Source: Reyranella sp. (GTDB taxonomy: Bacteria > Pseudomonadota > Alphaproteobacteria > Reyranellales > Reyranellaceae). From it: 64,000 bases of DNA. Positions 2,536-53,876 of this stretch are shown here, piece after piece. The DNA is taken from NCBI GenBank assembly GCA_021732285.1, contig JAKFVH010000216.1, positions 1 to 64,000 on the forward strand, in the 5' to 3' direction. A program made the position numbers and the translations under genes. Numbering within the stretch: the stretch's first letter is position 1; each line of letters opens with the position of its first letter. Under the pieces are notes generated by a model. It was not told the DNA's origin, searched no databases, and was given only the letters and a program-made list of their open reading frames with translations.

Positions 2536-3021
2536 GTGTCAAATCCTAGCCGCACATCGCGCCGGGCCCTGCTGGCCGGTGCAGCCGTCGCCATGGTTGG
2601 CAACAATGCTCGGGCGCAGCCATCGGACGATTCTGCCCAGATCCTCGCCATCATGGAGCGCTATGCCGCCGGGTTGCGCTGGGGCACGGCCGACGCCCTG
2701 GTGGCGCTCTACACGTCCGACGGCGTCTTCATCCGCGACAACCTCCCGGCGGCGGCTGGCACCGAAGCCCTACGCGCCGCGTACCGCCAGGTGTTCGCGA
2801 CTCTGAAGCTCGACGTCGCCTTCGAGATCAAGGAGACCGAGGTGGCGGGCGACATGGCGTGGCTGCGCGCCACCAGCAAGGGCCGCGTCAAGACTCTGGC
2901 GAGCGGCGTCGAGGCAATGGAGTCGTTCAACGACGTGGTGATCTTCCGGCGCACGGCAGCGGGCTGGAAGATCCGCTGTTACATCTACAACGCTGCCAAG
3001 GGAGCGGGCACGCCGCAGTAG
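2536..3021 (+). CDS. Exported SnoaL-like/DUF4440-type protein
   Basis: About 161 residues. I chose the GTG at 2536 because GGAGGG lies seven bases upstream and the product then starts with a twin-arginine-like leader (SNPSRTSRRALLAGAAVAMV) cut after ARA. The mature part is a single cone-shaped NTF2/SnoaL-like domain ('ILAIMERYAAGLRWGTADALVALYTSDGVFI'), as in the SgcJ/EcaC and DUF4440 families, whose members bind small hydrophobic ligands or act as isomerases and hydrolases. The substrate is unknown. An upstream ATG at 2509 is in frame but would put nine odd residues before the leader. It is followed six bases later by the NHL protein, probably in the same transcript. Confidence 0.75.
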   Translation: MSNPSRTSRRALLAGAAVAMVGNNARAQPSDDSAQILAIMERYAAGLRWGTADALVALYTSDGVFIRDNLPAAAGTEALRAAYRQVFATLKLDVAFEIKETEVAGDMAWLRATSKGRVKTLASGVEAMESFNDVVIFRRTAAGWKIRCYIYNAAKGAGTPQ

Positions 3022-3026
3022 GAACG

Positions 3027-3875
3027 ATGTCCGACGAACGCTACACCGTCATCCTGGGCGACCGGCGCTACGCCATCCATCGCAAGTGGGCGAAGCTGCC
3101 GGCGGGCGAGAGCTTCGGTTTCCTGTCCGACCTGATGGTTGACGGCGAGGGCCGTGTGCACGTCGCCCAGCGCGGCACCGACCGGCCGGTCCTGGTGTTC
3201 GATCGCGACGGCCGTCTCGCCGGCGCCTGGGGCGAAGGCGTGCTGGCCGAGCCGCACTACATCAGTAGCGCACCCGACGGCTCGATCCTGGTGGCCGATC
3301 GCGACGCCCATCAGGTGCTGCGCTTCGACGGCAACGGCAAGCTTTTACAGGCGCTGGGCAAGCGGCACTGGCCCGCGCTCGACGCGCCGTTCAACCATCC
3401 GACCGCGGCGGCACAGGCACCGGATGGCGAGATCTACGTCGCCGATGGCTACGGCAATTCCAGCGTTCATCGCTTCGCCGCCGACGGCACGCTGATTGCC
3501 ACCTGGGGCGGACCGGGCGCGGGGCCGGGCGCCTTCACCACGCCGCACGCCATCTGGGTCGACCGCTTCGGCAAGGTGCTGGTCGGCGACCGCGAGAACA
3601 ACCGCGTGCAGGTGTTCGACCGCGCCGGCGCCTTCCTCGCCGAATGGGGCGATTTCTACCACCCGATGCAGATCTGGGTGGACGACCGCGACCTGGTGTT
3701 CGTCACCGACCAGATTCCGCGCATCAGCCTTTTGAGCGCCGACGGCAAGCTGATCGGCCGCTGCCGCGGCGCCATCAACGGCGCGCACGGCATCTCGGGC
3801 GACGCTGAGGGCAACCTCTACCTCGCAGAGCTGCCGCCGCAGGAGATCACCAAGCTGGAGCGCCTGGATGCCTAG
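3027..3875 (+). CDS. NHL-repeat six-bladed beta-propeller protein
   Basis: A 282-residue soluble protein made of NHL repeats: recurring 'DG.i.VADRDAHQVLRFDGNGK', 'YVADGYGNSSVHRFAADG' and 'VGDRENNRVQVFDRAG' blocks of about 45 residues, giving roughly six blades. Such proteins resemble peptidylamidoglycolate lyase-type and gluconolactonase-like propellers, but enzymatic residues cannot be assigned here. There is no signal peptide. The ATG at 3027 follows the SnoaL-like gene after five bases, and its 3' end overlaps the patatin gene by eight bases, so the three form an operon. Confidence 0.85.
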   Translation: MSDERYTVILGDRRYAIHRKWAKLPAGESFGFLSDLMVDGEGRVHVAQRGTDRPVLVFDRDGRLAGAWGEGVLAEPHYISSAPDGSILVADRDAHQVLRFDGNGKLLQALGKRHWPALDAPFNHPTAAAQAPDGEIYVADGYGNSSVHRFAADGTLIATWGGPGAGPGAFTTPHAIWVDRFGKVLVGDRENNRVQVFDRAGAFLAEWGDFYHPMQIWVDDRDLVFVTDQIPRISLLSADGKLIGRCRGAINGAHGISGDAEGNLYLAELPPQEITKLERLDA

Positions 3876-5067
3876 GCTTCTTGTCCTGCTGATGGCCGCC
3901 GCCCTGGTGCTGGTCGCCGCTTGCTCGCACCCCGACCGCCTGCCGTCGGTGCCGCGCGCCGACACCGCGCGCGCCCTGCCGCTCGGCATCGCCAACGCGC
4001 GGTTCTTCGCCGACGGCGATGTCGCGCCGATGATCCAGGAGGGCATGCGTTCCCTGGAGCGCGAGATGGCGGCCTTGCGCGCCGAAGGCAAGAACCCGAT
4101 GCGGACCAACCTGCCGACCGCCTACTATCTCGCGGTCTCCGGAGGTGGCGACAACGGCGCTTTCGGCGCCGGCCTGTTGAACGGCTGGAGCGAGACCGGC
4201 ACGCGACCGGAATTCAGGATGGTGACGGGCGTCAGCACCGGCGCCCTGATCGCGCCCTTCGCCTTCCTCGGGCCGCAGTACGATCCGGTGCTGCGAGAGG
4301 TCTACACGACGCTCACGCCCGACCGGATCTTCCGTGCGCGCGGTCTGACTGCCGCCCTGTTCAACGACGCCATGGCCGACACCACGCCGCTGGCCGAGGT
4401 CATCGCCAAGTACGCCGACGAGAAGATGTTCGCCGCCATCGCCCGCGAGTACAACGAGGGCCGCCTGCTCCTGATCGGCACCACCGACCTCGACGCCCAA
4501 CGTCCGGTGATCTGGAACATCGGCGCGCTGGCGGCCAGCGGCAAGCCCGAGGCCCTGAAGCTCTTCCATCAGATCCTGCGCGCCTCGGCGGCGATCCCGG
4601 GCCTGTTCCAGCCGGTGATGATCGACGTCGAGCTCGACGGCAAGAAATTCCAGGAGATGCATGTCGACGGCGGCACTGTCGCCCAGCTCTTCCTCTATCC
4701 GCCGACCATCGAGGCCGGCCGCCTGCTGAAGCGCAAGCGCGTCGCCTACATCATCCGCAATGCGCGGCTCGATCCCGATTACGACATGGCCGAGCGCCGG
4801 ACCATCAACATCGCCGGCCGCGCCATCAACACCATGCTGGCGGCGAGCGGCCACAACGACATCATGCGCACCTGGTTCATCAGCCAGCGCGACGGCGTCG
4901 ACTACAACCTTGCCTATATAGGTTCCGACTTCACGGTCGAGAAGACAGGCGAGTTCGAGCAGGCCTACATGCGGGCGCTCTTCCAATATGGCTTTGAGCA
5001 GGCCAAGGCGGGCCGCGAATGGCACAAGCGGCCGCCTGCCTTCGCCCGGCAATCCGGCACGAACTAA
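3868..5067 (+). CDS. Patatin-like phospholipase, predicted lipoprotein
   Basis: A 399-residue serine hydrolase. The leader MPRLLVLLMAAALVLVAACS ends in a lipobox with Cys19, so the protein is probably lipid-anchored in the envelope. The patatin fold signature is complete: oxyanion loop GGGDNGAFG (residues 92-100), nucleophile elbow GVSTG with Ser123, and catalytic Asp267 in HVDGG. The family releases fatty acids from phospholipids or neutral lipids. The start overlaps the NHL gene by eight bases. The gene ends tail to tail with the TauE-like gene, overlapping it by four bases. Confidence 0.92.
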   Translation: MPRLLVLLMAAALVLVAACSHPDRLPSVPRADTARALPLGIANARFFADGDVAPMIQEGMRSLEREMAALRAEGKNPMRTNLPTAYYLAVSGGGDNGAFGAGLLNGWSETGTRPEFRMVTGVSTGALIAPFAFLGPQYDPVLREVYTTLTPDRIFRARGLTAALFNDAMADTTPLAEVIAKYADEKMFAAIAREYNEGRLLLIGTTDLDAQRPVIWNIGALAASGKPEALKLFHQILRASAAIPGLFQPVMIDVELDGKKFQEMHVDGGTVAQLFLYPPTIEAGRLLKRKRVAYIIRNARLDPDYDMAERRTINIAGRAINTMLAASGHNDIMRTWFISQRDGVDYNLAYIGSDFTVEKTGEFEQAYMRALFQYGFEQAKAGREWHKRPPAFARQSGTN

Positions 5068-18793: not shown

Positions 18794-21352
18794 TCAGCCG
18801 TTCGCGGCGATCCAGGCATCGATCTCCGGGACACGCTGGTCCCGGACCGAGAGTCGGAAAGCGGCATCGGCGTAGAACCTTTCCACCTGCGCCTTGTTTG
18901 CAGGTGGTACGTTGACGTCGATGAACTCGCGAAGCTGCTTCAGGATGGTCTCGTCGAGGGCTTGCGCGCCGATCGATGGAGCGAAAGTCACGCGCTGGAT
19001 CGCATCGAGTTTGGCGTTCAATTCCTTAAGATGATCCAGAACGAACACCCAGGCGAGCGGCGCGTTTTCTGCCGCGACACGCGCGATCATGAGTGGGCCG
19101 GTCGTCGTCGCCGGATCGTTGCCGAGCGCAATGTCGAGACTGCGCTTGGCCAAGTCCCTGTCTCGCGCCGAAGCCAGGGCCACGAAATACTGGTCCTTGG
19201 CCACAGGATCGACCGTCGCCTTTGCGAGAGCGTATAGCTGATCATAGCGAGCGGCATCCGCTGTCAATCCGACCACCCGCAGCACCGGCTGCCTGATGGC
19301 GGACGGTAAGCTTACGGGATCGTCCGGATGCGCGAGGAAATTGGCGAACCGCTTTCTCACCTCGCCAACGACTGACGCATCACCCAGGCGCCCGAGCGCC
19401 CAGATCAATTGCTCACGCAGAACGGCGTCGTTGTCGGGTTCGCCGGACCGCCTGTCCCATCCCAGCCGAGCGAAAGCCGCGCCAAGGATGCGGGCGGCGT
19501 ATTTGTCCAAAGCCGGTCTGCCACCGAGGCCCCAATAGAGGCTGTCGATCGACAGGAAGGTCTCTATCACCTGGCTCCACAGCACGGTATGGGCCTTGGT
19601 ATTGATCTGGCGACTGAGGTCGAGATAGCCCGCGACCGGCATGTCGCCGGCCTCTCCCAAGGCCCAGATATCGTACAGCAGGCCGAGCTGATCGCCCGGC
19701 GTCAGTTCATCGAATACCTTGGCGAGCGGGCCGAAGGACGCGTCGGAATACTTGCTCCGGTAGTACCCACCCTGGCCGAGGTTGAGCTTCACGGGCAGGG
19801 CGCCAGCCACGTCGACCTGCAGCGGATCCAGTCCGGACGTAACGATTCTGGCGGGCGGCTTGCCGCCGGGCACCGATCCGGCGATCACGGGCACATGCCA
19901 GACGAGGGGCTGCTGGGAGCCCTGGTCCAAACCGAAGCGACCCTGCCGCAACGACAGCTTTACAGTATCCCCGGCGTTGGCGGCGCTTTCCACGCTGATC
20001 AGCGGCACACCGGGCTGCAGGGTGAAGTCATCGGCGATCGTCTTGATGTCCTTCGCCCCGGCCGCCGTCATCTCGGCCCACAGGTCGTCGGTCCTGGTGT
20101 TCTTGTAGGCGTAGCGCTTCATGTAGGTGCGAACGCCCTGCCGGAACACCGGCTCCCCGACGTAGCTTTCGAGCATGCGGATGACCGCCTGCCCTTTGCG
20201 GTAGGTTATGTCGTCAAAGGCCTGGTCCGCCTGCTCCGCGCTCTCGATTTCCTGCACGACGGGATGGGTGGTCGACCTCGAGTCCTGCTTCATGGCTCTT
20301 TGTCGAGCCGACTCCGATTGCAGCCACATCGCCCACTCCGGATAGAAGTGCTCGGTGGCCTTGTTCTCCATCCAGGACGCAAACCCCTCATTCAGCCAGA
20401 GATTGTCCCACCATTCCATGGTCACCAGATTGCCGAACCATTGATGCGCCATCTCGTGCGCCACAACGACGAACACGCGTTGCCGGTCTGACTCGGTCGA
20501 GAGTGCCGGATCCATCAGCAAGGACGTTTCGAAGTAGAGAATTGCCCCCCAGTTCTCCATCGCCGAGAAGCCACCGGCGCCAGGGGCGGCCAGCAGATCG
20601 AGCTTGGGCAAGGGATACGGTGTGCCGAAATAGTCGTTGAAGTACTCGAGCAGCTTGCAGGCGCTCTCCAACGCGAACTGGCCCTTGTAGGCGCTTCCTG
20701 CGCGCGCCAGCACGGAGACGGCGATGCCGCCCACGTTGGTTTCCAGGCGGTCCAGTTCGCCGACGCAGAGGAACAGCAGATAAGTGGACATCGCCGGGCT
20801 GCGCTGGAAGCGCACGAACCGCAGCCCTGCATCTGAGGATTCCGTTCGCTCGACCGGCATGTTCGATATGGCGGTCTCGCTGGCCGTGATCGCGATGCTG
20901 ACGGAGAAAGTCGCCTTGCGTGCCGGCTCGTCCCAACATGGCATGAAGCGGCGCGCGGCCACCGCCTCGAACTGGGTAAGCAGCATCTGCCGGCGGCCAG
21001 CGGGCGTATCGTAGCTCGTTACGAATAGCCCCTCGGCGCTTTCGTTGATCTTTCCGAGATAGTCGATCGCGAGGTCGTAGATGCCGGCTTCGATCAACTC
21101 GTCGAAATGGAGATTGACCCGCTGGCTTCCCAGATCGACCACGGGCGTTCCGGTCCGGATGCCGTGGATGCCCCGCAGCTCGACCGATCCGAACTCGAGA
21201 TCCGCGCTATTGAGCGAGATGACCGATGTCGGCTCCAGGATGTTGATCGTGATGGTCACTTGGCCCTTGAAGGCGAGCGCGCCCAGGCGAGGCACGATCT
21301 CGACATCGTAGTGACGGGGGACCACGTTCTGCGGCAGTTCAATTCGCGACAC
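18794..21352 (-). CDS. M1-family zinc aminopeptidase
   Basis: An 852-residue enzyme with the N-terminal beta-saddle, the exopeptidase motif GFSAMENWG (residues 261-269), zinc site HEMAHQW (His299, Glu300, His303) with third ligand Glu322 in NEGFA, and a complete helical C-terminal (ERAP1-like) domain. This is the long puromycin-sensitive-type architecture rather than the short LTA4-hydrolase type. It has no signal peptide, so it acts on cytosolic peptides. Its start overlaps the flavoprotein stop by 14 bases. The last residues, RLSVRDQRVPEIDAWIAANG, recur in the small peptide at 16482-16556. Confidence 0.95.
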   Translation of the reverse strand: MSRIELPQNVVPRHYDVEIVPRLGALAFKGQVTITINILEPTSVISLNSADLEFGSVELRGIHGIRTGTPVVDLGSQRVNLHFDELIEAGIYDLAIDYLGKINESAEGLFVTSYDTPAGRRQMLLTQFEAVAARRFMPCWDEPARKATFSVSIAITASETAISNMPVERTESSDAGLRFVRFQRSPAMSTYLLFLCVGELDRLETNVGGIAVSVLARAGSAYKGQFALESACKLLEYFNDYFGTPYPLPKLDLLAAPGAGGFSAMENWGAILYFETSLLMDPALSTESDRQRVFVVVAHEMAHQWFGNLVTMEWWDNLWLNEGFASWMENKATEHFYPEWAMWLQSESARQRAMKQDSRSTTHPVVQEIESAEQADQAFDDITYRKGQAVIRMLESYVGEPVFRQGVRTYMKRYAYKNTRTDDLWAEMTAAGAKDIKTIADDFTLQPGVPLISVESAANAGDTVKLSLRQGRFGLDQGSQQPLVWHVPVIAGSVPGGKPPARIVTSGLDPLQVDVAGALPVKLNLGQGGYYRSKYSDASFGPLAKVFDELTPGDQLGLLYDIWALGEAGDMPVAGYLDLSRQINTKAHTVLWSQVIETFLSIDSLYWGLGGRPALDKYAARILGAAFARLGWDRRSGEPDNDAVLREQLIWALGRLGDASVVGEVRKRFANFLAHPDDPVSLPSAIRQPVLRVVGLTADAARYDQLYALAKATVDPVAKDQYFVALASARDRDLAKRSLDIALGNDPATTTGPLMIARVAAENAPLAWVFVLDHLKELNAKLDAIQRVTFAPSIGAQALDETILKQLREFIDVNVPPANKAQVERFYADAAFRLSVRDQRVPEIDAWIAANG

Positions 21353-22475
21353 GGCTTCCTCCCCAGTCCTTGCTCAGCCTGTTCGTCCAGAACAGGCTCT
21401 CGGGCCACTGCCGCTCCAGCGCATAGAAATGCTGTCGCAGGGCCAAGTGATCTTGAGTGTTGGCGGCGATGCGCCGGGCATAGTCGTCGGATCGATCCTC
21501 ATGATGCCGAAGCGATGCGTGGATCGCTTCGGCGGCACGGATGCCGTCTTCGATCGCCTTGTAGAGTCCTTCGGAACCCAGCGGATCGAAGATTGCTGCG
21601 GCGTCGCCGACTGCGGTCCAGCCCGCGCCGCACGGGCGCTCGCGCGCCGATACCGGCACCGCGCGCACCACCAGCGGCCCGAGGCCAAGGGGCGTGTCCG
21701 CAAGACGCGGACCGATATGGCGGGTCGCCGCCAGCGACTTCAGCCACCCGCCCGGACGGTCGAGGCGTCGTTTGCGGGAGATCTTCGGGTCGGTGGCAAA
21801 TGCCAGCGACAGCCGGTTCCCCGGGATTGCCGCCGCGTACCACCAGCCGTCTTCGACGGTTTCTGTCATGGTGAGACGCGAGGGCCACGCACCGTCGGCG
21901 AGGGCGACCGTGGCGGTGAGGAAGACCAGCAGATCATATCGGACGGACGGAGAGCCGACTGAACGGGCGAAAGCACCACGCGGTCCGGTCGCATCCACGA
22001 CATGCCGCGCGATGGCAATCCTTTCACCGTTCTCGGCGCTGAAGCGGAGCTGGAAGCCCTCCTCCAGGGCCAGCGCTTCGACGCCCGCGAGCCGGTGACA
22101 GGTCCGAAGCGGAATGCCGCGTGCGGCGACGGTGCGCCGCAGCAGTCGATCGAAGCGCGGCCGGTGGATGTGCCATCCGCAACCGCTCATGTTGGAAAGG
22201 AAGTCGTTGTATCCCAGATCGGGGCCGCCCCAAGCGGCACAGCTCCCTAGGCAAGGTTCGTGACCGTCGGCCTGAAACAGGTCCCACAAATCCAGGGCCT
22301 TCAGCAGCCCGGACACGTCCGGCGGCAGCGATTCGCCCACCCAATCGCTGCGTACCGACGCACCGGCATCGAACAGGGCGATGTCGTCGATCCCGGCGGC
22401 GTGCAACGCCAGTGCCGTGGCACATCCGGCCACACCGGCGCCGAGGATCGCGACGTCGAAGGCCTCCGGCTTCAA
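21339..22475 (-). CDS. LodB-type FAD-dependent oxidoreductase (tryptophan-halogenase-like fold)
   Basis: A 378-residue flavoprotein: ADP-binding site 'DVAILGAGVAGCATALAL', then 'DWVGESLPPDVSGLLKAL' and the second FAD motif 'WTAVGDAAAIFDPLGSEGLY'. This is the class of LodB/GoxB, the helpers that hydroxylate a tryptophan during formation of the cysteine tryptophylquinone cofactor of LodA/GoxA. The start is taken as TTG 22475, which overlaps the TGA of the oxidase gene; longer frames run antisense through that gene. Position directly after the LodA-type gene matches known lodAB operons, so a maturation role is a strong inference. Confidence 0.85.
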   Translation of the reverse strand: MKPEAFDVAILGAGVAGCATALALHAAGIDDIALFDAGASVRSDWVGESLPPDVSGLLKALDLWDLFQADGHEPCLGSCAAWGGPDLGYNDFLSNMSGCGWHIHRPRFDRLLRRTVAARGIPLRTCHRLAGVEALALEEGFQLRFSAENGERIAIARHVVDATGPRGAFARSVGSPSVRYDLLVFLTATVALADGAWPSRLTMTETVEDGWWYAAAIPGNRLSLAFATDPKISRKRRLDRPGGWLKSLAATRHIGPRLADTPLGLGPLVVRAVPVSARERPCGAGWTAVGDAAAIFDPLGSEGLYKAIEDGIRAAEAIHASLRHHEDRSDDYARRIAANTQDHLALRQHFYALERQWPESLFWTNRLSKDWGGSRVAN

Positions 22476-25400
22476 TGGATCGTACCCATGCCGCGCACCC
22501 GACCCGTACGGTGCAGGCTGCGCTTGCGCGCCGGCGTCGTCATGCGCAGCGACGTCGTCGCCAGCGACGGCACCGGGCAGCCTGCCTCGATCCAGCGGAA
22601 GAGGATATCGCGACACGTGCCGCCGGCCCCGCCCGGTGCCGGTAGATCGAACACCGGCCCCATCGGGCCCGTCGGCGCTGCGAACGTGGCGAAGAGCGGG
22701 CTGAGCTGCGGCTGGCCCGGTGTGACATAGCCGTTGCGCGGTTCGGCAAGCGCCCGCAGGAAGTTGTCGGTGGGTTGTTCGAACCACCAGGCGATGCTGT
22801 GCGCCACGCCCTTGTCGTCGGCCAGCACGGCTTCCTCATGGCCCAACGAACCGCGCTGCATGGCGCGCAGGCTGTCCACGAGTCCGGCCATCTGCTGCGC
22901 TAGCGGCGGCGGTGGCGGCGGCTGCTCGGGTTCCGGATGGCCGAGGCTGTTGGTGTAGTCCCGCCAGAGGGCGATCTCGTCGTCGGTGAACACGCGGTAC
23001 ATCGGCCCCACCTGGAAATCGAGGAGCTGACGCAAGCGGCTGTTCTGCCAGTCGCCCGGCGTCAGATAGCCGTGGCGCACCAAGGCATCGAGAAAGCCCG
23101 GCGGATCCTCGAACCATTCGTCGATCCGGGTCGGCCCCACCATGTGGCGCTGGTGGTTGCGGCTGCCGAACACCGCCTTGTCGCTGATCAACTGGATCAG
23201 CCGGTCACGCAGCGTCGGCCGGCTGCGCAGATGGTGCTTGAAGTCCTCGAAGAAGGTGCCGACCGAGCCGAACGCGACATAGCCGTTCCAGATACGTCGC
23301 CACGCCCGCTGCACCGCGGCCGTTCCACCGGCCTCACGGACTTGGGCGAGATAAAGCCGGACGGCCTCCGCGGCGCGCTGTCCATGCCCATTGACCGCGT
23401 TATCGATGGCGATGTGCATGATGTAGAAGTGCGGACTGATGCCGAAGAAGTCCATGAGATCGCGCGTCGGCTTCAGCTCCAGCACGCACCACTCGAGCTG
23501 CAAGGTCATGCCGATGAGCTCGGGAATGTATTCGTCGGTGAACTGGGAGATCGCCAGCTCGAACGCCGGAACCTGGAAGGCGCTGTCGAGCAGGCTTGGG
23601 TCGAAGGCGAACTCGCGGCTGTTGATGGGTGGCGGTGCGTAGCCGACGCTGTGGCAGAGATCACGGTAGATGTTGCAGTGATGCATCGAGACATCGCCGG
23701 CGCCGAGCTCGTCCATCCACACCGAGAACAGCAGGGCGCCCACCTCGTCCTGCGGCCCGGCGCGGCCGATGTTGCGGAGCCATGCGCCGTCCAGCAGATT
23801 GAACGGCGCCAACTGCTTGATGCGCTCGACGGCGTCGGCGCGTGTTCGCACGACATTGTCGGGGTCGCCCGGGTTGCTCTCGTCGGCGTTCTCGGCAAGG
23901 TCGTTGTAGATCAGGTCGAGCCGGTCGGCGAAAGCCTGCTCCGAATACGGGAAGAACCGGAGGTCCTGCTCCGTGTTCGGGTCGTTGGAGATGCGCTCGG
24001 CCTGGCCCAGCCAGTAATCCACGAAGGCGCGCGCCGTGGTCAGCACCCCCGGATAGCTGGAAACGTTGAGGAGCTGGTGGAACAGCGCCCGAGGATCGAG
24101 CTCGCTCGCCGCGAGGGCGGGTTCGACGAACTGCTCGAGGTAGGTCGCGATATTCGGAAACGGCACGACCGGTGTGCGGCCCGTATCGCGCAGCTGCCCG
24201 CGGGTTTCCAGGAACCAGTCCGCCGGCAGCGCGGCACCGGTCGGAAGCCCGAGCGTCGGATCGTCGATCCGTGTGGCCTGCAGCACCACGCCCACGCGAT
24301 GCCAGTTATCTAGGATGTCGACGCGCTCCTGATAGCGCCCCCACCGCTCGGCGTCCGGCGAGTCAGTGCCATAGCCGCGCACCGACCAGCGTTGTGGCCC
24401 CAGTACGGGCGTGAGCTGCGGCGGAGTCTTGCTCTTGTCCGTGATCCAGCGTGTGTCCGACGCGAGGTTGACCGCTACCGGACGCTGGGCGGGCCAGGAC
24501 CAGAATACCTTCCGGTTGCCCTTGGGGTTGGGATAGGGCGGATGGGTCGCGCACGAGTTGTAGTCGGTGTGCCATGGCACAGCCATGAACTTCGCGAAGT
24601 CGCCGGGCTCCAGCCCTTCTTCCTCCCGATGTCGCGGGACATAGCCTCCCGTGAGGAATGGCTGGTCGCGGCGAAGCACGCGGGAGTAGTCGAGCACCTT
24701 GCCCTTGATGCGGAATGGCCCCCTGCCCTTGGATTGCCAGGGCTGAACATAGGTTGTTGGCTCGCGCACGATGAACGTGACGTCGATGCCGGGGCTGAAG
24801 CGGCCGCCCAGGCAGTTCACCAGCACGGCCTTGTCGAGATATTCGCCCGGACCCAGCGGCTTTCCCGACCCGGGCTGGAATGAGCCGAGTCCCTCGTTCC
24901 AGCGGCGCAGGAAGAAGTACTGTGTCTTGCGCAACGACAGGAACGGCTCGTAGCCGTCGCCGAGCGCGAGCGGCATCATGGTGGTGTTGTTGTGTTGCGG
25001 GCTCTTGGGGTCATCGAGCTCGAACGGATTGCGGAAGATGGGGAGGATGCCCGCAAGCTCGGAATGATGCGGATTGTCTGCGGCTGAAATAGCGGCAAGC
25101 TTGCCGTGTGCGGAAGCCCCGTGCGCACTCAGATTGACGACCCAGCGCTGTTGGGCGGCGCTGCGGAAGATCGGTGCGATCTGATCGTCGAAGGTCGGCC
25201 GGTAGCTGTTGTTGAAGTCCTTGCCGTCGAAGATCTCCGGCGCAAGATCGAGCTTGCGGACCCAGGAATCGTAGATGTCGTCCCAAGCTGACACCGTGTT
25301 GAGGATCTGCGGCGCGACGGCGGGATCGGTCGTGGTCACCCAGGCGCCCGCCGCCTCCGCCTGCGTGCCATCGTCGAACACCAACGTCGCCGAGATGGGG

Positions 25401-26248
25401 CCGTCTGACGTATCGTCGAACCATTGGTCGTTGTTGACATCGTCCGTCACCCCGATCCGGCCCTCGATCTTCCAACCGACCGCCGCGCCGTAGCCGCCCA
25501 GCACGAGGAGACGGCCCGACCCGTCCGTCTTGAGCTCGCCCAGTGTGTCGATCGGCCCCGATGGCATTTCCATGTCGTCGAAATCGGGGAAGCTCACGGG
25601 ATAGTCGGGCAGCGCCACCGTCCGCCGTTTCACCGGATCGTACGCGGAGGGTATCGTCGTGCGGTCAAAAGCGATCGTGGCGCTCGTGCGGCCGGAGATG
25701 GCCCGCGGGCCCGCATCGATCGTGAGCTGCGCCACGCGGGTGGGATCGTCGATGTGCGCGACCCGCTTCTCGACAGGCGGCTGCGGCGCCTTGGCCTCGG
25801 TCACGCTCACATTGCGCAGAGGCGGCAGACGGCCATCGGAGTAGCTGTCGATGCCTTGGATCGGGCCCTCCTCGACCATCACGAACCAGTTCGCCTTCTT
25901 GTTGGCGACGTGCACAGTCCAGATGATGTCGGTCACCGTCTTGCTGCCGACCTGGGCGCCGATCTTCACCTCAACACCGTCGCCGCGCGGCCAGCTTTCG
26001 GTCGGAAGGTCGTCATAAGCGAAGATCCGGAAGCGGGCGGCATGGCGCTTCAGGGCGCCCTCCCTGTCGCGCAGATCGCTGCTGGTGACGAGGTCATGCT
26101 CGGTGTCCGGCCGGATCGGCAGTCCGCCGATCACATCGGCCACGTGGGGATCCGGATGTCCGGCCATGGATTCGGGCGAGATGACATACTCGGAGCTGTT
26201 GCCGACCCTGGCGAACCCGATGGCCGGATGAATGCGGAAAGTTGTCAC
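22472..26248 (-). CDS. LodA-type CTQ amine oxidase fused to a haem-oxygenase-like di-iron domain
   Basis: A 1,258-residue protein starting at GTG 26248 (AAGGAAG upstream). Residues 1 to about 660 are a LodA/GoxA-family oxidase: 'FRIHPAIGFARVGNS' at the N-terminus, 'PGDFAKFMAVPWHTDYNSC' with Cys566, and 'FWSWPAQRPV' with Trp583/Trp585. These are candidates for the residues that make cysteine tryptophylquinone; the exact pair needs an alignment. Residues about 690-1000 look like an iron-containing redox enzyme of the haem-oxygenase-like di-iron class: 'MDELGAGDVSMHHCNIY' (Glu847, His856/857), 'PELIGMTLQLEW' (Glu910/919) and 'HIAIDNAVNGH' (His945, Asp949, His955). A further helical part and a Cys-containing tail follow. 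No signal peptide. LodA-type enzymes oxidise the amine of free or peptidyl amino acids, giving ammonia and H2O2. Confidence 0.85.
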   Translation of the reverse strand: MTTFRIHPAIGFARVGNSSEYVISPESMAGHPDPHVADVIGGLPIRPDTEHDLVTSSDLRDREGALKRHAARFRIFAYDDLPTESWPRGDGVEVKIGAQVGSKTVTDIIWTVHVANKKANWFVMVEEGPIQGIDSYSDGRLPPLRNVSVTEAKAPQPPVEKRVAHIDDPTRVAQLTIDAGPRAISGRTSATIAFDRTTIPSAYDPVKRRTVALPDYPVSFPDFDDMEMPSGPIDTLGELKTDGSGRLLVLGGYGAAVGWKIEGRIGVTDDVNNDQWFDDTSDGPISATLVFDDGTQAEAAGAWVTTTDPAVAPQILNTVSAWDDIYDSWVRKLDLAPEIFDGKDFNNSYRPTFDDQIAPIFRSAAQQRWVVNLSAHGASAHGKLAAISAADNPHHSELAGILPIFRNPFELDDPKSPQHNNTTMMPLALGDGYEPFLSLRKTQYFFLRRWNEGLGSFQPGSGKPLGPGEYLDKAVLVNCLGGRFSPGIDVTFIVREPTTYVQPWQSKGRGPFRIKGKVLDYSRVLRRDQPFLTGGYVPRHREEEGLEPGDFAKFMAVPWHTDYNSCATHPPYPNPKGNRKVFWSWPAQRPVAVNLASDTRWITDKSKTPPQLTPVLGPQRWSVRGYGTDSPDAERWGRYQERVDILDNWHRVGVVLQATRIDDPTLGLPTGAALPADWFLETRGQLRDTGRTPVVPFPNIATYLEQFVEPALAASELDPRALFHQLLNVSSYPGVLTTARAFVDYWLGQAERISNDPNTEQDLRFFPYSEQAFADRLDLIYNDLAENADESNPGDPDNVVRTRADAVERIKQLAPFNLLDGAWLRNIGRAGPQDEVGALLFSVWMDELGAGDVSMHHCNIYRDLCHSVGYAPPPINSREFAFDPSLLDSAFQVPAFELAISQFTDEYIPELIGMTLQLEWCVLELKPTRDLMDFFGISPHFYIMHIAIDNAVNGHGQRAAEAVRLYLAQVREAGGTAAVQRAWRRIWNGYVAFGSVGTFFEDFKHHLRSRPTLRDRLIQLISDKAVFGSRNHQRHMVGPTRIDEWFEDPPGFLDALVRHGYLTPGDWQNSRLRQLLDFQVGPMYRVFTDDEIALWRDYTNSLGHPEPEQPPPPPPLAQQMAGLVDSLRAMQRGSLGHEEAVLADDKGVAHSIAWWFEQPTDNFLRALAEPRNGYVTPGQPQLSPLFATFAAPTGPMGPVFDLPAPGGAGGTCRDILFRWIEAGCPVPSLATTSLRMTTPARKRSLHRTGRVRGMGTIH

Positions 26249-26331: not shown

Positions 26332-28065
26332 CTAGCGGGTGGCAGGCCGCAGCAGCGGTCCTTCGAAGTCCGCGTGAACCGCTTCCGGCGCACTGCGCCC
26401 GATCGCGCCACGGACGATGGCAGGGATGTCCTTCGGGTCGAGTACGACGTCGATCAGGATCGGCCGATCGACGACTTCGGCCGCCTGGCCGAGGGCCTGC
26501 TTGAGCTCGCCCAGTGTTGTCGCCCGTGCGTATTGCGCCCCGAAAGCTTCGGCCAACGCGCCGTAATCCCAGGGCGGGAGGACGTTGTAGTAGTCCGGCT
26601 GTGCCGCAGATTCCTGGTAGTACTTGGGATTGCCCATGAACTGCTGGATTCCCATGATCTGGTTGTTGATGACGCAGATCACGGCGGGCAGCTTGTACTG
26701 GACGAGCGTGGAGACGGCCTGGGGACCCTCGCGGAATGCGGTATCGCCGACGAAAACCACCGGCCGCTGCCCGCTGGCGCAGGCGGCGCCCACGGACGCG
26801 CCCACGCTGTACCCTATCGACATCCAGATCGACTGCGATATGTACGCCCCGGGCGCCGATATCGGCAGTCCGGCAGAGGCAAAGAGCGACAGACCGGTGT
26901 CGGCGATCACGCGCTTGCCGCGGACGAACTCCGCAACATGGGCGAACAGCAGATCGAACGTCAGGGTCGTGTCTTCGGCACGTTTGGCCACGGCGATCTC
27001 CTGCTGCCGCGCGGCCGGCGCCCAGGAGGCCGGAACAACGGGGCGGCGCAGCCTCTCCGTCAGTCCGGCAACGAAATCCCGCAGCGTCACGTCGGCGTAG
27101 ACGTGGTGCCCGATCCGCACGCCGCCATTCGACGCCAGGACCATGGACCCGTATTCCTTGGCCACGATGTCGCCGACAAAGTCCGTGATTGCCGTCCCCA
27201 GCGCGACGACGAGATCGGCCTTCTCAACGATTTCCTGAACGTCCGGCGATGCAAATCGTCCGTCATAGACCCCGAGAAACCCCTTCGTCGTCTCGGCCAC
27301 CACCGCTTTGCCGGCGAGTGTCGTGACATAAGGAAGCCCAGTGACGCCCACCAACTCGGAAAGGTCGTCCTGCAAACCCCAGCGATCGAGCTCTTCGCCT
27401 GCCCACAACAGCGCTCGGCGTGCGCCAGCAAGTCGTGCCACTACCTCGGTGAGGCACTCCGACAGGGCGTCGCCATTCACCGGTTTGGCCGGTACGTTCA
27501 ATGGTTGTGCCGGCGGGGGGCAGGATTGGTGCCACAGGTCCTGGCTGATCTCGAGGTACACGGGCCGCCGATGGGTCATGCAGGCGATGAGGACCTCGTC
27601 GATCTTGCTCGGTGCGTCCTCCGCGCGGTTGATGACGGCGGCCGCGACCGTCACTTGCGAATAGACCGCGAGGTCCGTCTTGAGGGGGCCGGTCGAGTGC
27701 AGGAACATGATGCCGTACTCGACCTGCAACTGAAGCTGCTTGGACGAAGGGCCGCCGTTGATCACGATGACCGGACAACGTTCCACGAATGCGCCGGCGA
27801 TCCCGTTGAGGGCGCTGAGCGCGCCAACGCCATAGGTTCCGCAGATCGCCCCGTAACCTCTGATTCGAGCGTAGGCGTCGGCGGCATAAGCCGCCTCCAT
27901 TTCATAGGTCGTAAAGACCGCCCTCAGCCGACGGCTCTTGGGGAGCTCGGCAAGCAGGCCGCTGCAATAGCTGCCCGCGACATTGAACAGATGCTCGATG
28001 CCGAGCTCCTCGAGCCGCGATATCAGATAGGATGCGACGGAGCCCGTCTGATTTCCCTTAGGCAT
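26332..28065 (-). CDS. ThDP-dependent 2-oxoacid decarboxylase-like enzyme
   Basis: A 577-residue protein with the three-domain layout of pyruvate/indolepyruvate decarboxylases. The ThDP-activating Glu is Glu55 in 'YEMEAAYAADAYARIRGYG'. The diphosphate/metal motif reads GDTAFREGPQAVSTL ... VINNQIMGIQQF, with Thr where most relatives have Gly. At the place of the usual His-His pair it has LHSTG, keeping only the first His. A non-oxidative decarboxylase or carboligase acting on a 2-oxo acid is likely; the substrate may be the product of the downstream amino-acid oxidase. First large gene of the island operon; 83 bp separate it from the oxidase. Confidence 0.85.
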   Translation of the reverse strand: MPKGNQTGSVASYLISRLEELGIEHLFNVAGSYCSGLLAELPKSRRLRAVFTTYEMEAAYAADAYARIRGYGAICGTYGVGALSALNGIAGAFVERCPVIVINGGPSSKQLQLQVEYGIMFLHSTGPLKTDLAVYSQVTVAAAVINRAEDAPSKIDEVLIACMTHRRPVYLEISQDLWHQSCPPPAQPLNVPAKPVNGDALSECLTEVVARLAGARRALLWAGEELDRWGLQDDLSELVGVTGLPYVTTLAGKAVVAETTKGFLGVYDGRFASPDVQEIVEKADLVVALGTAITDFVGDIVAKEYGSMVLASNGGVRIGHHVYADVTLRDFVAGLTERLRRPVVPASWAPAARQQEIAVAKRAEDTTLTFDLLFAHVAEFVRGKRVIADTGLSLFASAGLPISAPGAYISQSIWMSIGYSVGASVGAACASGQRPVVFVGDTAFREGPQAVSTLVQYKLPAVICVINNQIMGIQQFMGNPKYYQESAAQPDYYNVLPPWDYGALAEAFGAQYARATTLGELKQALGQAAEVVDRPILIDVVLDPKDIPAIVRGAIGRSAPEAVHADFEGPLLRPATR

Positions 28066-28114: not shown

Positions 28115-28155
28115 AGTGCCCCCTCAACTATCCCGAGAAATAGTCGAAGCAATTG

Positions 28156-28179
28156 TACTCGCTCGTGTGGTACCGAGTA
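28156..28179. promoter_or_regulatory. Candidate LysR operator in divergent promoter region
   Basis: TACTCG and CGAGTA form an inverted repeat with a 12-base spacer, located 19 bp upstream of the LysR start and about 90 bp upstream of the ThDP gene. LysR proteins normally bind such dyads in the shared divergent promoter. The 11-mer ATTGTACTCGC overlapping the left arm occurs again at 31070-31080. Confidence 0.5.
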
Positions 28180-28197
28180 ATTCGCTATATTTTCCCG

Positions 28198-29160
28198 ATG
28201 GCTGTTAAAAAACGCACAGGTGACTTGGACTGGGAAGACGTCCGCTATTTCGTAGCGCTAGCGCGCCATCGCTCGCTGTCGGCGGCAGCGCGGGCGCTTC
28301 GTGTCAATCACGCGACAGTGTCGCGTCGGGTCGCCCGCCTCGAGGCGCTGCTCGCGCGACCGTTGTTCGATCGCCACACCGATGGCTATACGCTCACTCT
28401 CGATGGCAAGGCGGTACTCGACGAGGCGAGTACCATGGACAACGCCGCTTCGTCGATATCGCGTCGACGCGATGAAAATACCGGACTGAGCGGGCTGGTT
28501 CGTCTAACTGCAGGACGCAGCCTGGCAGAGGGCTTCCTAATCGAACGCCTGGATGGGTTGCATCGGCGCCATCCGGCAATCGATGTCGAAGTGATCGGAG
28601 ACGTGCGGCTCCTAAGCCTCGCGCGACGGGAGGCTGATCTTGCCCTGCGTTTCGGCAAGCCAAAGAGCAGCGAGCTTGCTGCCCGGCGGGTTGGTACGAT
28701 CTTCTTTGGGCTCTATGTTGCCGCGGCCTTGCGCTATGAGCCGGACGTGGCTGCTCGGCTCCCCCTCATCGGCTTTGACAAAGAAGGCGATTCGATCGCC
28801 GAGGCCGAGTGGCTGTCACGGTACTTTCCGGGCCGGCGGTTTTCTTTCCGCGGCAACAGCCAGATAGCGCAAGCAGGCGCGGCGCGCGCGGGCTTTGGCG
28901 TCGCTCTCTTGCCACGCTATCTCGTAGCCGACGACCCGCGGCTGGCGGAGGTTGCATGTGACAAGCCGCTGCTGGAGCGCGAGGTTTGGCTCCTCGTCCG
29001 CCCCGACCTTACCCGGGTCCCCCGCGTCCGTGCCGTGGCCGACTATATATTCGAGTTGTTCCGCCGCGAACGCGAACGGCTCTCGGGGCTCTCCGAGTCT
29101 CGGGACCGCAAGGTCGCCGCCTTCGCAGAGATCGCGACGCTGAACCGATACGATCACTAG
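28198..29160 (+). CDS. LysR-family transcriptional regulator
   Basis: A 320-residue regulator. The N-terminal winged helix-turn-helix reads 'WEDVRYFVALARHRSLSAAARALRVNHATVSRRVARLE', and the C-terminal effector domain is type-2 periplasmic-binding-protein-like. ATG 28198 gives MAVKKRTGDLDWEDV; codons further upstream run through the operator. It is transcribed divergently from the island operon, the standard arrangement for a LysR activator of that operon. The effector may be an amino acid or 2-oxo acid, but this is inference. Confidence 0.9.
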   Translation: MAVKKRTGDLDWEDVRYFVALARHRSLSAAARALRVNHATVSRRVARLEALLARPLFDRHTDGYTLTLDGKAVLDEASTMDNAASSISRRRDENTGLSGLVRLTAGRSLAEGFLIERLDGLHRRHPAIDVEVIGDVRLLSLARREADLALRFGKPKSSELAARRVGTIFFGLYVAAALRYEPDVAARLPLIGFDKEGDSIAEAEWLSRYFPGRRFSFRGNSQIAQAGAARAGFGVALLPRYLVADDPRLAEVACDKPLLEREVWLLVRPDLTRVPRVRAVADYIFELFRRERERLSGLSESRDRKVAAFAEIATLNRYDH

Positions 29161-43578: not shown

Positions 43579-44391
43579 GTGCTGCGACTGGAAGGCGTCA
43601 CCAAGAGTTTTGGCGACAAGCGCGCCGTCGACCAGGTGTCGCTGGTCGTTCCGACCGGCCAGCTCGTCGGCGTGATCGGGCGCTCGGGCGCCGGCAAGTC
43701 GACCCTGCTGCGCATGATCAACCGCCTGGGCGATCCCAGCCATGGCCGCATCCTGTTCGGCGACACCGACATCACCGCGCTCAAGGGCCGCGCGCTGCGC
43801 CAGTGGCGGGCGCGTTGCGCCATGATCTTCCAGCAGTTCAACCTCGCCGGCCGCCTCGACGTGCTGAACAACGTCATGATGGGACGGCTCAGCCGTGTCG
43901 GAACCACGCGGGCGCTGCTCAAGCTCTGGAGCGAGGACGACCGGGCCATCGCCCTTTCCGCGCTGGATCAGTTCGACATGGCGGGGCTCGCCGCCCAACG
44001 GGCCGATACGCTTTCCGGCGGCCAGCAGCAGCGGGTCGCGATCGCCCGGGCGATGGTGCAGGAGCCCGACATCATCCTGGCCGACGAACCGATCGCCTCG
44101 CTCGATCCGCGCAACACAAAAATCGTCATGGACTCGTTGCTGCGCATCAACAAGCACTTCGGCATCACCGTCGTCTGCAACCTGCATTCGCTCGATACGG
44201 CCCGCGCCTATTGCGACCGGCTGGTCGGCATGGCCCAGGGCAAGGTGGTGTTCGACGGCGCCCCGCAAACCCTCACCGACGACATCGCGCGCGACCTTTA
44301 CGGGCTCGACGCCGGCGAGGTGATGGACACCGCCGGCACCGCATTGCCCTTGCCGGTGCAAGAGGGTCGTCCATCTCTCGCCGTCGCCTGA
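43579..44391 (+). CDS. phnC: Phosphonate ABC transporter ATPase PhnC
   Basis: A 270-residue ATPase: Walker A '[17 protein letters not shown]', Q-loop '[22 protein letters not shown]' (the PhnC-typical version), signature '[15 protein letters not shown]', Walker B '[13 protein letters not shown]', H-loop 'CNLHSLDTA'. It energises uptake of phosphonates from the periplasm. Start is GTG 43579. First gene of phnCDE1E2-DUF1045; the C-P lyase genes lie on the opposite strand downstream. Confidence 0.94.
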
Positions 44392-44437
44392 CGCAGAAGA
44401 AGTCCACGTCATCTCCAACGAGCCACCGGAGTTCCGC

Positions 44438-45379
44438 ATGATCAAACGACGTTCGACCCTGGCGCTCGCTGCCAGCGCGCTGGCCCTGGGCATGCCCGGC
44501 CTCTCCTTGGCGCAGGACTGGAAGGCCAAGTATCCCGAGATCGTGGTGGCGATCGTGCCGGCGGAGAACGCCAGCGGCGTCGTCGATCGCTACACCCCGT
44601 TCGCCAAGTATCTCGAGAAGGAGCTCGGCACCAAGGTGACCTTGCGGGTTGCCAACGACTACACGGCCGTCATCGAAGGCATGAAGAATCGGCAGATACA
44701 TGTCGGCTTCTTCGGACCCGGATCGTATGCGCGCGCCTATGCGGTCTCGGGCGGCAACACGATCGCCTTCGGCACGACCCAGAATCAGGACGGCTCCATC
44801 GGCTACTATTCGGTCGTCTATGTAAAGGCCGACAGCCCCTACAAGGCACTGGACGACCTCAAAGGCAAGAAGCTCGGCCTGGTCGACGTCGAATCGACGT
44901 CCGGATACAAGGCCCCGGTATTCTTCATGTCACGCGAGGGCAAGGCCCCGGACAAGTTCTTTGCCGTGGCGCAGGTAACGGGCAGCCACGAGAACGCCGT
45001 GCTCGCCATGGTGCAGGGCACCGTCGATGGAGCGACCAACTGGTGGAACTCGGATACCGATTCCAACCTGACGCGGATGATCAACAAAGGAATGCTCAAG
45101 AAGGCTGACGGCACGCCGATGAAATACGAGGACTTCCGCATCGTCTGGAAGTCGCCGCTGCTCGCCGGCTCGCCCTACGCCTACCTCAACGACATGCCCG
45201 ATCCGCTCAAGAAGGCGATCGCCGACGCCTTCTATCAGGCGCACAAGAAGGACAAGGCTGCCTTCGACAAGCTGTCGGACGGCAAGGACCTTGCCTTCGT
45301 TCCGGTCGGTCACAAGGACTATCTCGAGTTCATCGAGCTCAACAAGCATCTGGAGGAACTACGCCGCAAGAAGAGCTGA
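44438..45379 (+). CDS. phnD: Phosphonate-binding protein PhnD
   Basis: A 313-residue periplasmic protein with signal peptide (cut near ALGMPGLSLAQ). 'VVAIVPAENASGVVDRYTPF' and 'VGFFGPGSYARAYAVSGG' are PhnD/SsuA-like phosphonate-binding elements; 'DVESTSGYKAPVFFM' contains the Ser-Thr-Ser-Gly site that binds the phosphonate oxygens. It has a proper ATG 44438, 46 bp after phnC. Confidence 0.95.
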   Translation: MIKRRSTLALAASALALGMPGLSLAQDWKAKYPEIVVAIVPAENASGVVDRYTPFAKYLEKELGTKVTLRVANDYTAVIEGMKNRQIHVGFFGPGSYARAYAVSGGNTIAFGTTQNQDGSIGYYSVVYVKADSPYKALDDLKGKKLGLVDVESTSGYKAPVFFMSREGKAPDKFFAVAQVTGSHENAVLAMVQGTVDGATNWWNSDTDSNLTRMINKGMLKKADGTPMKYEDFRIVWKSPLLAGSPYAYLNDMPDPLKKAIADAFYQAHKKDKAAFDKLSDGKDLAFVPVGHKDYLEFIELNKHLEELRRKKS

Positions 45380-45484
45380 TGATTTCTTCCTTGCGGATCC
45401 TGCGACTGGTTGGTGCTCTTGGTTTGGCAGCCGCCAAGACGCCAACCAGTATCGCTGGGGGAAAGTGATCATGGTTCTGCGGAC

Positions 45485-46369
45485 GTGAGAACAGTTCCGC
45501 TTCTCCCGCCGGCTCAGCTCTCGCCGCTGGCGCATGCCTATGACGCTGCCGTCTTGGCCAAGCGCCGATGGACCATGCTTGGCCTTGTCCTGGTCCTGGT
45601 CTTTTCCGTGCTGTCGGCGTGGATCGGCGAAGTGGACCCGGCGAAGTTCTGGAATGGCCTGCCGCGCTTCGTCAGCTATTTCCACGACATCCTGCCGCAA
45701 TTGCGTCTGGCAAGCCTCGGCGCCGACCTCGAGGAGTGGTTCTGGAACCTCGACGGATGGCTGGGCCTGTTGTTCGACACGCTGCTCGTCGCCTATGTCG
45801 GCACCTTGTTCGGCGCCATCGCGGCCTTCGTCCTGTGCTTCCTGGCGTCCGCCAACCTGACCCGCTCGGCCACGCTGCGGTTCGCCTCGCGGCGGCTCCT
45901 GGAGTTCTGCCGAACCGTGCCCGAGATCGTGTTTGCCCTGATGTTCGTCTACGCCTTCGGTTTCGGCGCGATGCCCGGCGTTCTTGCCATTGCCATCCAC
46001 ACCGCCGGCGCGCTCGGCAAGCAGTTCTCCGAGGTCGTCGAGAATGTGGACATGCATCCGGTCGACGGCCTGACGGCCACCGGCGCCACTTATGTCGAGA
46101 CCATCCGCTTCGGCGTGGTGCCCCAGATCCTGTCGAACTTCATGAGCTACTCGTTGCTGCGCTTCGAGATCAATGTCCGCGGCGCGACGGTTCTCGGGTT
46201 CGTCGGCGCCGGCGGCATCGGCAAGGAACTCATCTCGTCGATACGCCAATTCTACTACGCCGACGTGAGCGCCATCCTGCTCATCATCATCGCGACCGTC
46301 TTCCTCATCGATTGGCTGACGGAACGGCTGCGCCATCGATTGCTGAGCCTTGATGGTGCCGAGCAATGA
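45485..46369 (+). CDS. phnE: Phosphonate ABC transporter permease PhnE (first)
   Basis: A 294-residue inner-membrane subunit with six predicted helices and the permease motif 'IRFGVVPQILSNFMSYSLLR ... NVRGATVLGFVGAGGIGKEL'. GTG 45485 is the start; the frame is open further upstream but no ribosome-binding site supports it. It overlaps the second permease by four bases. Confidence 0.92.
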   Translation: MRTVPLLPPAQLSPLAHAYDAAVLAKRRWTMLGLVLVLVFSVLSAWIGEVDPAKFWNGLPRFVSYFHDILPQLRLASLGADLEEWFWNLDGWLGLLFDTLLVAYVGTLFGAIAAFVLCFLASANLTRSATLRFASRRLLEFCRTVPEIVFALMFVYAFGFGAMPGVLAIAIHTAGALGKQFSEVVENVDMHPVDGLTATGATYVETIRFGVVPQILSNFMSYSLLRFEINVRGATVLGFVGAGGIGKELISSIRQFYYADVSAILLIIIATVFLIDWLTERLRHRLLSLDGAEQ

Positions 46370-47217
46370 TCCGTCAAACTGACGTTGACCGCGCCGGCCT
46401 GAAGGAACGATATCCGGAGACTTTTCGTACGCCCGTGCTGGCGCACGCGGTCTACCTGACGATCGTCACGGCAGGCGCTGGCCTCGTTGTCTACGCCTTA
46501 TGGCGGTTCGGATTTTCGCCGGCCAAGTTTCTCGACGGCCTCGGAAAGCTCGGCACCGTCCTTACCCTGATGGTGCCACCGGATCCGGGCAGCCAGCTCT
46601 GGAAGTATGTTGCGGCACTCGGAGAGACCCTGTCGATTGCATTCCTTGGCACGCTGGGCGCGGCCATCCTCGCGCTCCCGGCCAGCATGCTTGCTGCCAA
46701 GAACGTCGTCGCAAACCGGTTCGTGCACTTCGCCAGCCGCCGCTTCCTGGATTCGATCCGCGGCATCGATACCCTGATCTGGGCGCTCATCTGGATCAAT
46801 GTCGTGGGCCTGGGACCCTTCGCCGGCATCCTCGCCATAATGACTTCGGACTTCGGTTCCTTTGGCAAGCTGTTTTCGGAAGCGATCGAGGCGTCTGATC
46901 GCAAGCCCGTGGACGGCGTGACGTCTGCCGGCGGCTCCGATCTGCACGGCTTCCGCTTTGGTGTGCTTCCCCAGGTTCTGCCCATCCTGTTGAGCCAGGT
47001 TCTCTACTACTTCGAGAGCAACACGCGGTCGGCCACCATCATCGGCATCGTCGGTGCGGGTGGAATCGGCCTCTACCTTGCCAACGAGATCGCCCAAGCC
47101 GAGTGGCAAAGCGTCGCCTTCCTGATCCTCATGATTCTTGCCACTGTGGCGGCCATCGACTGGATCTCGGCAAAGATCCGCTTTGCCGTGATCGGTCGTC
47201 GTGGGGTAGTAGCTTGA
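46366..47217 (+). CDS. phnE: Phosphonate ABC transporter permease PhnE (second)
   Basis: A 283-residue paralogue of the first permease; phn operons with two phnE genes are usual in alphaproteobacteria. The motif 'FRFGVLPQVLPILLSQVLYY ... TRSATIIGIVGAGGIGLYL' is complete. ATG 46366 overlaps the previous stop; its own stop overlaps the TTG of the DUF1045 gene. Confidence 0.92.
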   Translation: MIRQTDVDRAGLKERYPETFRTPVLAHAVYLTIVTAGAGLVVYALWRFGFSPAKFLDGLGKLGTVLTLMVPPDPGSQLWKYVAALGETLSIAFLGTLGAAILALPASMLAAKNVVANRFVHFASRRFLDSIRGIDTLIWALIWINVVGLGPFAGILAIMTSDFGSFGKLFSEAIEASDRKPVDGVTSAGGSDLHGFRFGVLPQVLPILLSQVLYYFESNTRSATIIGIVGAGGIGLYLANEIAQAEWQSVAFLILMILATVAAIDWISAKIRFAVIGRRGVVA

Positions 47218-48486: not shown

Positions 48487-48487
48487 T

Positions 48488-48613
48488 CCTCCCCAGCGAA
48501 GCTGGGGAGGTGTCGGCGTCCTACGCCGACGGAGGGGTCATGAGCGTCAGTACTGGTGCTCATGACCCCTCCGCCCGCTGCGCGGGCACCTCCCCACGCT
48601 CCGCGTGGGGAGG
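48488..48613. repeat. Four-hairpin intergenic palindromic repeat, copy 2
   Basis: Same element as at 590-698, in the opposite arrangement: CCTCCCCAGCGAAGCTGGGGAGG at the left end, GGAGGGGTCATGAG/CTCATGACCCCTCC in the centre, and a second CCTCCCCA hairpin at the right end. It fills the gap between phnM and phnN and must contain any ribosome-binding site of phnN. Confidence 0.8.
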
Positions 48614-48627
48614 AAAGGTATGATGAC

Positions 48628-50552: not shown

Positions 50553-50554
50553 CA

Positions 50555-52170: not shown

Positions 52171-52173
52171 CGG

Positions 52174-53271: not shown

Positions 53272-53272
53272 G

Positions 53273-53866: not shown

Positions 53867-53876
53867 GAGCCGGCCC

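What the first reader, a model, noticed from the sequence alone, without database searches (positions are those of the whole stretch)
22472..26248. LodA/GoxA-type oxidase fused to a haem-oxygenase-like di-iron domain
The first 660 residues carry LodA-type motifs (FRIHPAIGFARVGNS, NSC, WPAQRP). Residues 690-1000 show the Glu/His pattern of haem-oxygenase-like di-iron oxidases (DELGAG...HH, PELIG...LEW, HIAID...GH). Di-iron enzymes of this fold cleave C-C bonds or N-oxygenate amino acids, so one chain may do two successive oxidations on one substrate.
Basis: partly seen in the sequence, partly recalled or inferred. Interest (0 to 1): 0.85.

Follow-up and report, generated by a model that had tools for sequence, protein, structure and literature searches.

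The report
Quinone oxidase fused to di-iron enzyme
One bacterial protein joins an amine oxidase with a self-made quinone cofactor to a second, probably iron-dependent oxidising enzyme; the same iron module has been joined to two distant branches of that oxidase, which suggests that the two halves work together, perhaps through the hydrogen peroxide that the first half makes.

Summary
ORF 22472-26248 (-) is one intact chain: a LodA/GoxA-family oxidase (residues 1-660) and a haem-oxygenase-like di-metal oxidase (HDO) domain (about 716-1000), followed by two related C-terminal segments. The quinone residues are Cys566 and Trp585, not 583. Five of six SznF metal ligands align (E847, H857, E919, H945, D949); H955 is the likely sixth and D820 sits where SznF has E189. 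A LodB-like maturase gene overlaps the stop codon. LodA-PF14518 fusions were tabulated in 2015, so the combination is not new; its function is unknown.

New here: six named relatives, five of them fused in the same order. The LodA halves come from two distant lineages (one-clade AU test p = 4e-6), while the HDO modules form one clade together with an unfused actinobacterial copy. So one di-iron module was joined to, or re-paired with, LodA twice.

"Two successive oxidations on one substrate" is possible but unproven. I slightly prefer a peroxide link: LodA makes H2O2, other LodA proteins carry catalase-like domains, and a characterised HDO relative, Acinetobacter DtpC, is co-transcribed with katE and limits H2O2. 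Against this, the closest solved folds are N-oxygenases, and the nearest unfused HDOs lie in biosynthetic clusters.

The parts
22472..26248 (-). fused gene, 1258 aa (GTG start at 26248-26246; stop 22474-22472)
   Evidence: codon-position GC bias
24269..26248 (-). LodA/GoxA-family half, residues 1-660
   Evidence: Pfam LodA_N/LodA_C; 41.8% identical to an unfused LodA of Xanthomonas sacchari; profile match to solved LodA, E about 1e-114
24551..24565 (-). Asp562-xxx-Cys566: conserved Asp and the quinone-forming Cys (LodA D512, C516)
24494..24496 (-). Trp585, the quinone-forming Trp (LodA W581)
   Evidence: the Trp directly before PPQ in LodA aligns with the Trp of WPAQRP
23249..24103 (-). haem-oxygenase-like di-metal oxidase domain, about residues 716-1000
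   Evidence: PF14518 3.5e-17; structure comparison
23384..23791 (-). candidate metal ligands D820, E847, H857, E919, H945, D949, H955
   Evidence: invariant in six modules and in DtpC-like proteins; aligned to SznF E189, E215, H225 and E281, H311, D315; H955 by position only
22475..23131 (-). C-terminal part, residues about 1040-1258: two related segments (GYLTPG...GPMYRVF...; GYVTPG...GPMGPVF...) and a conserved tail ending GMGxxH
   Evidence: alignments; the first segment is shared with DtpC-like proteins
21339..22475 (-). LodB/GoxB-like flavoprotein maturase; TTG start overlaps the stop of the fused gene (TTGA)
   Evidence: NF038171 3.8e-60, below its curated cut-off; sequence
26332..28065 (-). 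thiamine-diphosphate 2-keto-acid decarboxylase-like gene (indolepyruvate decarboxylase group), 83 bases upstream on the same strand
   Evidence: a similar gene follows the Marivita fusion
28153..29160 (+). divergent LysR-type regulator
18794..21352 (-). M1 aminopeptidase, overlapping the maturase gene by 14 bases

Best explanation
A two-enzyme chain coupled through peroxide. Step 1 (inferred by family): the LodA half, once its Cys566-Trp585 quinone has been made with the help of the LodB-like neighbour, oxidises an amine or amino acid with O2, giving an aldehyde or keto acid, ammonia and H2O2. Step 2 (inferred): the fused HDO domain, with a di-metal site of E847, H857, E919, H945, D949, H955 and perhaps D820, consumes that H2O2 where it is made, either simply removing it or using it to form the peroxo-di-iron state that oxidises a small molecule, with no separate reductase. 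Shown here: the fusion, the conserved cofactor residues, and the repeated pairing of one HDO module with two LodA lineages. Not shown: any activity, metal content or peroxide use.
For: H2O2 is the product common to the LodA/GoxA oxidases whose activity has been tested (PMC4417212). The LodA halves of the fusions come from two lineages that the data refuse to join, while the HDO modules are one clade; a partner linked to the shared by-product fits this. Other LodA-like proteins are fused to catalase-related domains (21 proteins in the 2015 table); one long LodA protein fetched here matches catalase only weakly in its N-terminal part (0.046) and PDB 3e4w, which I recall as a catalase-related peroxidase (7e-4). 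DtpC of A. baumannii, an HDO related to this module (2.5e-20, sharing the ligands and the first C-terminal segment), is co-transcribed with katE, and either gene alone keeps H2O2 low in dried cells; its E143, H153 and H232 are needed for protection. A DtpC-like gene on an A. ursingii plasmid also lies about 2 kb from a catalase gene.
Against: DtpC's authors leave open iron binding, scavenging or biosynthesis, and DtpC gave no protection against acute H2O2. DtpC-like proteins fall outside the clade of the fused modules and their nearest relatives. The nearest relatives by tree (81/65 support) are tandem HDOs inside NRPS/ACP or similar clusters. The best structural matches are N-oxygenases. The HDO review read here does not mention H2O2 or a peroxide shunt. 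The catalase-like match in the LodA protein tested is weak.
Confidence: 0.36

Rival explanations
1. Sequential oxidation: both halves act on the same amine or amino acid. For example, the HDO half N-oxygenates an amine, or cleaves or desaturates an amino acid, and the LodA half deaminates it, or the reverse. The neighbouring decarboxylase and peptidases belong to the same amino-acid route.
For: The closest solved folds are the amine N-oxygenases RohS (Z 11.4), HrmI (10.2, with N6-hydroxylysine as product) and SznF (10.0). D820 aligns with SznF E189, the extra carboxylate position I recall for the 3H/4C type (the 3H/4C class is described). Characterised HDOs mostly act on amino- or fatty-acid substrates. 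A thiamine-diphosphate 2-keto-acid decarboxylase lies by the fusion in the window and in Marivita, there with a VioA-like amino-acid oxidase. Nearest unfused HDOs sit in biosynthetic clusters.
Against: Two LodA lineages, probably of different substrates, carry the same module. No conserved biosynthetic neighbours across the loci. The two decarboxylases are only 34% identical. Fold similarity to N-oxygenases does not show the reaction.
Confidence: 0.32
2. The two domains work independently and are joined only for co-expression or localisation, for instance as an antimicrobial oxidase with an unrelated second activity.
For: The fusion is rare and patchy: only the window's own among 299 phylum genomes, 2 of 146 in one genus, 1 of 201 in another. 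Some LodA relatives are antimicrobial through H2O2 (PMC4417212).
Against: Repeated pairing of one module with two LodA lineages is more than chance linkage would suggest.
Confidence: 0.15
3. The HDO half helps to build or protect the protein itself, for example by assisting quinone maturation or modifying the chain, as some proteins of this fold take part in cofactor synthesis (PqqC, CADD).
For: The haem-oxygenase fold includes PQQ synthesis and the self-sacrificing CADD. The LodA and HDO halves diverge at similar rates within each lineage.
Against: A LodB-like gene is next to all five fusions searched, and most LodA proteins mature without an HDO partner. The HDO module also occurs without LodA in an Acidimicrobiaceae genome.
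Confidence: 0.1

Closest known systems
LodA-like proteins with pfam14518 (Campillo-Brocal et al. 2015, PMC4417212, Table 3: Actinoplanes, Burkholderia sp. BT03, Calothrix, Paenibacillus pinihumi, Rhizobium sp. STM6155)
   Same: LodA-family protein carrying a Haem_oxygenas_2 domain; function unknown
   Different: The paper places the domain in the N-terminal region; here it is C-terminal, with two further segments and a conserved tail. Those five proteins were not available for comparison.
LodA (L-lysine 6-oxidase) and GoxA (glycine oxidase)
   Same: Both Pfam domains, quinone Cys and Trp, conserved Asp, LodB-like neighbour
   Different: Scores far below the curated LodA (239.7 of 600 bits) and GoxA (142.8 of 750) cut-offs, so the substrate cannot be inferred; and it has the HDO module
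DtpC of Acinetobacter baumannii (PMC13232832)
   Same: Related HDO domain with the same ligand residues, and the first C-terminal segment
   Different: Stands alone beside katE; falls outside the fused clade; its chemistry is unsettled
SznF, RohS, HrmI (HDO N-oxygenases)
   Same: Same fold by model comparison; five SznF ligands align
   Different: Very low identity (11-15%); D820 replaces the Glu of SznF E189; no LodA partner

Membership tests
LodA/GoxA-type quinone oxidase family | LodA_N and LodA_C domains | tested here: met
   both above the gathering cut-offs
LodA/GoxA-type quinone oxidase family | Cys and Trp at the quinone positions, with the conserved Asp | tested here: met
   C566, W585, D562
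LodA/GoxA-type quinone oxidase family | adjacent LodB-like maturase gene | tested here: met
LodA/GoxA-type quinone oxidase family | mature Cys-Trp quinone in the protein | not testable with these tools
   needs mass spectrometry or quinone staining
LodA (lysine 6-oxidase) equivalog | NCBIfam NF038172 cut-off of 600 bits | tested here: not met
   239.7 bits
GoxA (glycine oxidase) equivalog | NCBIfam NF038173 cut-off of 750 bits | tested here: not met
   142.8 bits
Haem-oxygenase-like di-metal oxidases (HDO) | PF14518 / haem-oxygenase fold | tested here: met
   3.5e-17; model pLDDT 61, top structural matches all HDOs, Z up to 11.4, first unrelated row at 4.3; the model is modest
Haem-oxygenase-like di-metal oxidases (HDO) | 3 His and 3 carboxylate ligands | tested here: met
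   E847, H857, E919, H945, D949 align with SznF ligands in weak profile matches; H955 by position; all invariant
Haem-oxygenase-like di-metal oxidases (HDO) | bound di-iron or Fe/Mn centre | not testable with these tools
   needs metal analysis
3H/4C N-oxygenase subtype (SznF-like) | fourth carboxylate from an auxiliary helix | tested here: inconclusive
   invariant D820 aligns with SznF E189 (weak profile match; role of E189 recalled, not found in the papers read)
DtpC | same lineage and katE linkage | tested here: not met
   fused modules form a separate clade; no catalase gene seen beside the fusions among the genes examined

The most novel reading that the evidence does not exclude
A natural self-fuelled peroxygenase: a protein-derived-quinone oxidase that makes H2O2 and passes it to a fused di-iron site, which uses it in place of O2 plus a reductase; the arrangement arose, or was re-paired, in two LodA lineages.
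Probability: 0.2. Interest if true: 0.8.

Novelty: new variant of a known kind. Interest (0 to 1): 0.52.

Why it matters
Few proteins combine a protein-derived quinone with a non-haem di-metal site. Recurrent pairing of one HDO module with two LodA lineages points to a functional link that can be tested, and would help with two open questions: what the many uncharacterised LodA-like oxidases do, and whether some HDOs, such as DtpC, handle peroxide.

Tried and rejected
AlphaFold on residues 1-1110 with six rows failed (pLDDT 37), so nothing is said about the distance or a channel between the two sites. Viral contigs gave no relatives. Upstream hypothetical genes beside the unfused LodA relatives in X. 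sacchari and P. xiamenensis were tested as split-off HDO partners; no HDO match. The idea that all fusions descend from one fused ancestor that kept its LodA half was tested and rejected; one fusion followed by replacement of the LodA half cannot be told from two fusions, because the HDO tree is unresolved inside the clade (54% of bootstraps join the fused rows). Protease linkage (S53 beside two Paraburkholderia fusions; M1, M28 and M43 genes downstream in the window; M48 and astacin near the Sphingomonas fusion) is noted, but proteases are common and it was not tested against background. Trp583 as the quinone Trp was dropped on alignment to LodA W581. E910 as the second-helix ligand was dropped in favour of E919.

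Full report
What is there. The minus-strand ORF 22472-26248 encodes 1258 residues from a GTG preceded by AAGGAAG. Pfam finds LodA_N, LodA_C and Haem_oxygenas_2 with strong scores. A profile of LodA-family sequences aligns to solved LodA at E about 1e-114 and places the quinone-forming pair at C566 and W585, with D562 at LodA D512. These residues are invariant in the nine sequences aligned. The LodA and GoxA equivalog cut-offs are not met, so the substrate is unknown.

The second half. PF14518 covers 811-987. Profile alignments to SznF place E847 at E215 and H857 at H225, and E919 at E281, H945 at H311 and D949 at D315; these SznF residues and H318 are essential metal ligands (PMC11705231). H955 is the likely sixth. 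The sequence matches themselves are weak (SznF E about 0.8 and 0.6-0.7). D820 aligns with SznF E189, which I recall as the extra carboxylate of the 3H/4C type. All seven are invariant in the six related modules and in DtpC-like proteins. A structure model of 706-1110 is modest (pLDDT 61, pTM 0.55), but Foldseek's top five are SznF and HrmI, and structural alignment lists RohS, HrmI, SznF, FlcD, BesC and UndA ahead of the first unrelated row.

Relatives. A genome scan found relatives in five named organisms: Sphingomonas, Paraburkholderia, Caballeronia and Marivita as fusions, and an Acidimicrobiaceae genome with an unfused module; P. caribensis was found on a plasmid. The six fusions, the window's included, share one order: LodA, HDO, two C-terminal segments, and a tail ending GxGxxH. 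In the Acidimicrobiaceae genome no LodA was found, and the missing end of the module lies on another contig; that genome is fragmented. A LodB-like gene is adjacent in all five fusion genomes searched, and a FAD oxidoreductase gene overlaps the P. caribensis fusion. The fusion is rare and absent from the few same-genus genomes sampled.

Two LodA lineages. In a 22-row tree the window and Sphingomonas LodA halves group with unfused proteins of X. sacchari and P. xiamenensis, and the other four fusions group on the GoxA side; one clade of fused rows is rejected (difference in log-likelihood 180, p-AU 4e-6). The HDO modules form one clade at 100/98 with the unfused Acidimicrobiaceae copy, unresolved inside. 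Between lineages the LodA halves are 34-36% identical and the HDO modules 44-48%; within a lineage both halves diverge alike. The junctions also differ. So one module was joined to LodA twice, or its LodA half was replaced.

How it may work. LodA enzymes release H2O2. Other LodA proteins are fused to catalase-related domains (weak match here). DtpC, an HDO related to this module, is co-transcribed with katE and limits H2O2 in dried cells; the copy fetched here has E143, H153 and H232 and is followed by catalase HPII. This favours a peroxide link, at 0.36. The main rival, two oxidations of one substrate, has the N-oxygenase-like fold, the biosynthetic setting of the nearest unfused HDOs, and the neighbouring decarboxylase on its side.

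Known or new.

Noticed in passing
G000:C216:3293-4315 (locus L086, ORF 2969-4429): A second LodB-like flavoprotein gene in the same genome (2.8e-71), with no LodA gene found in that genome besides the window's.
   Followed up: partly
L058:6633-8936; L059:6639-8933; L057:6717-8927: About 740-770 aa proteins with HDO domains, apparently in tandem: beside NRPS/ACP or KASIII genes and followed by an acyl-CoA dehydrogenase gene in S. meliloti and S. lavendulae; in A. baumannii beside a carbamoyltransferase-like gene (read from sequence only).
   Followed up: partly
L038:11687-15071: The Marivita fusion is followed by a VioA-like FAD amino-acid oxidase and an indolepyruvate-decarboxylase-like gene.
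   Followed up: partly
L072:472-3942: An actinobacterial LodA protein with a C-terminal match to a virginiamycin-B-lyase-like propeller (9.5e-12, below cut-off).
   Followed up: no
window 43579-54082: Genes that read like a phosphonate transport and C-P lyase cluster (from the sequence starts only).
   Followed up: no
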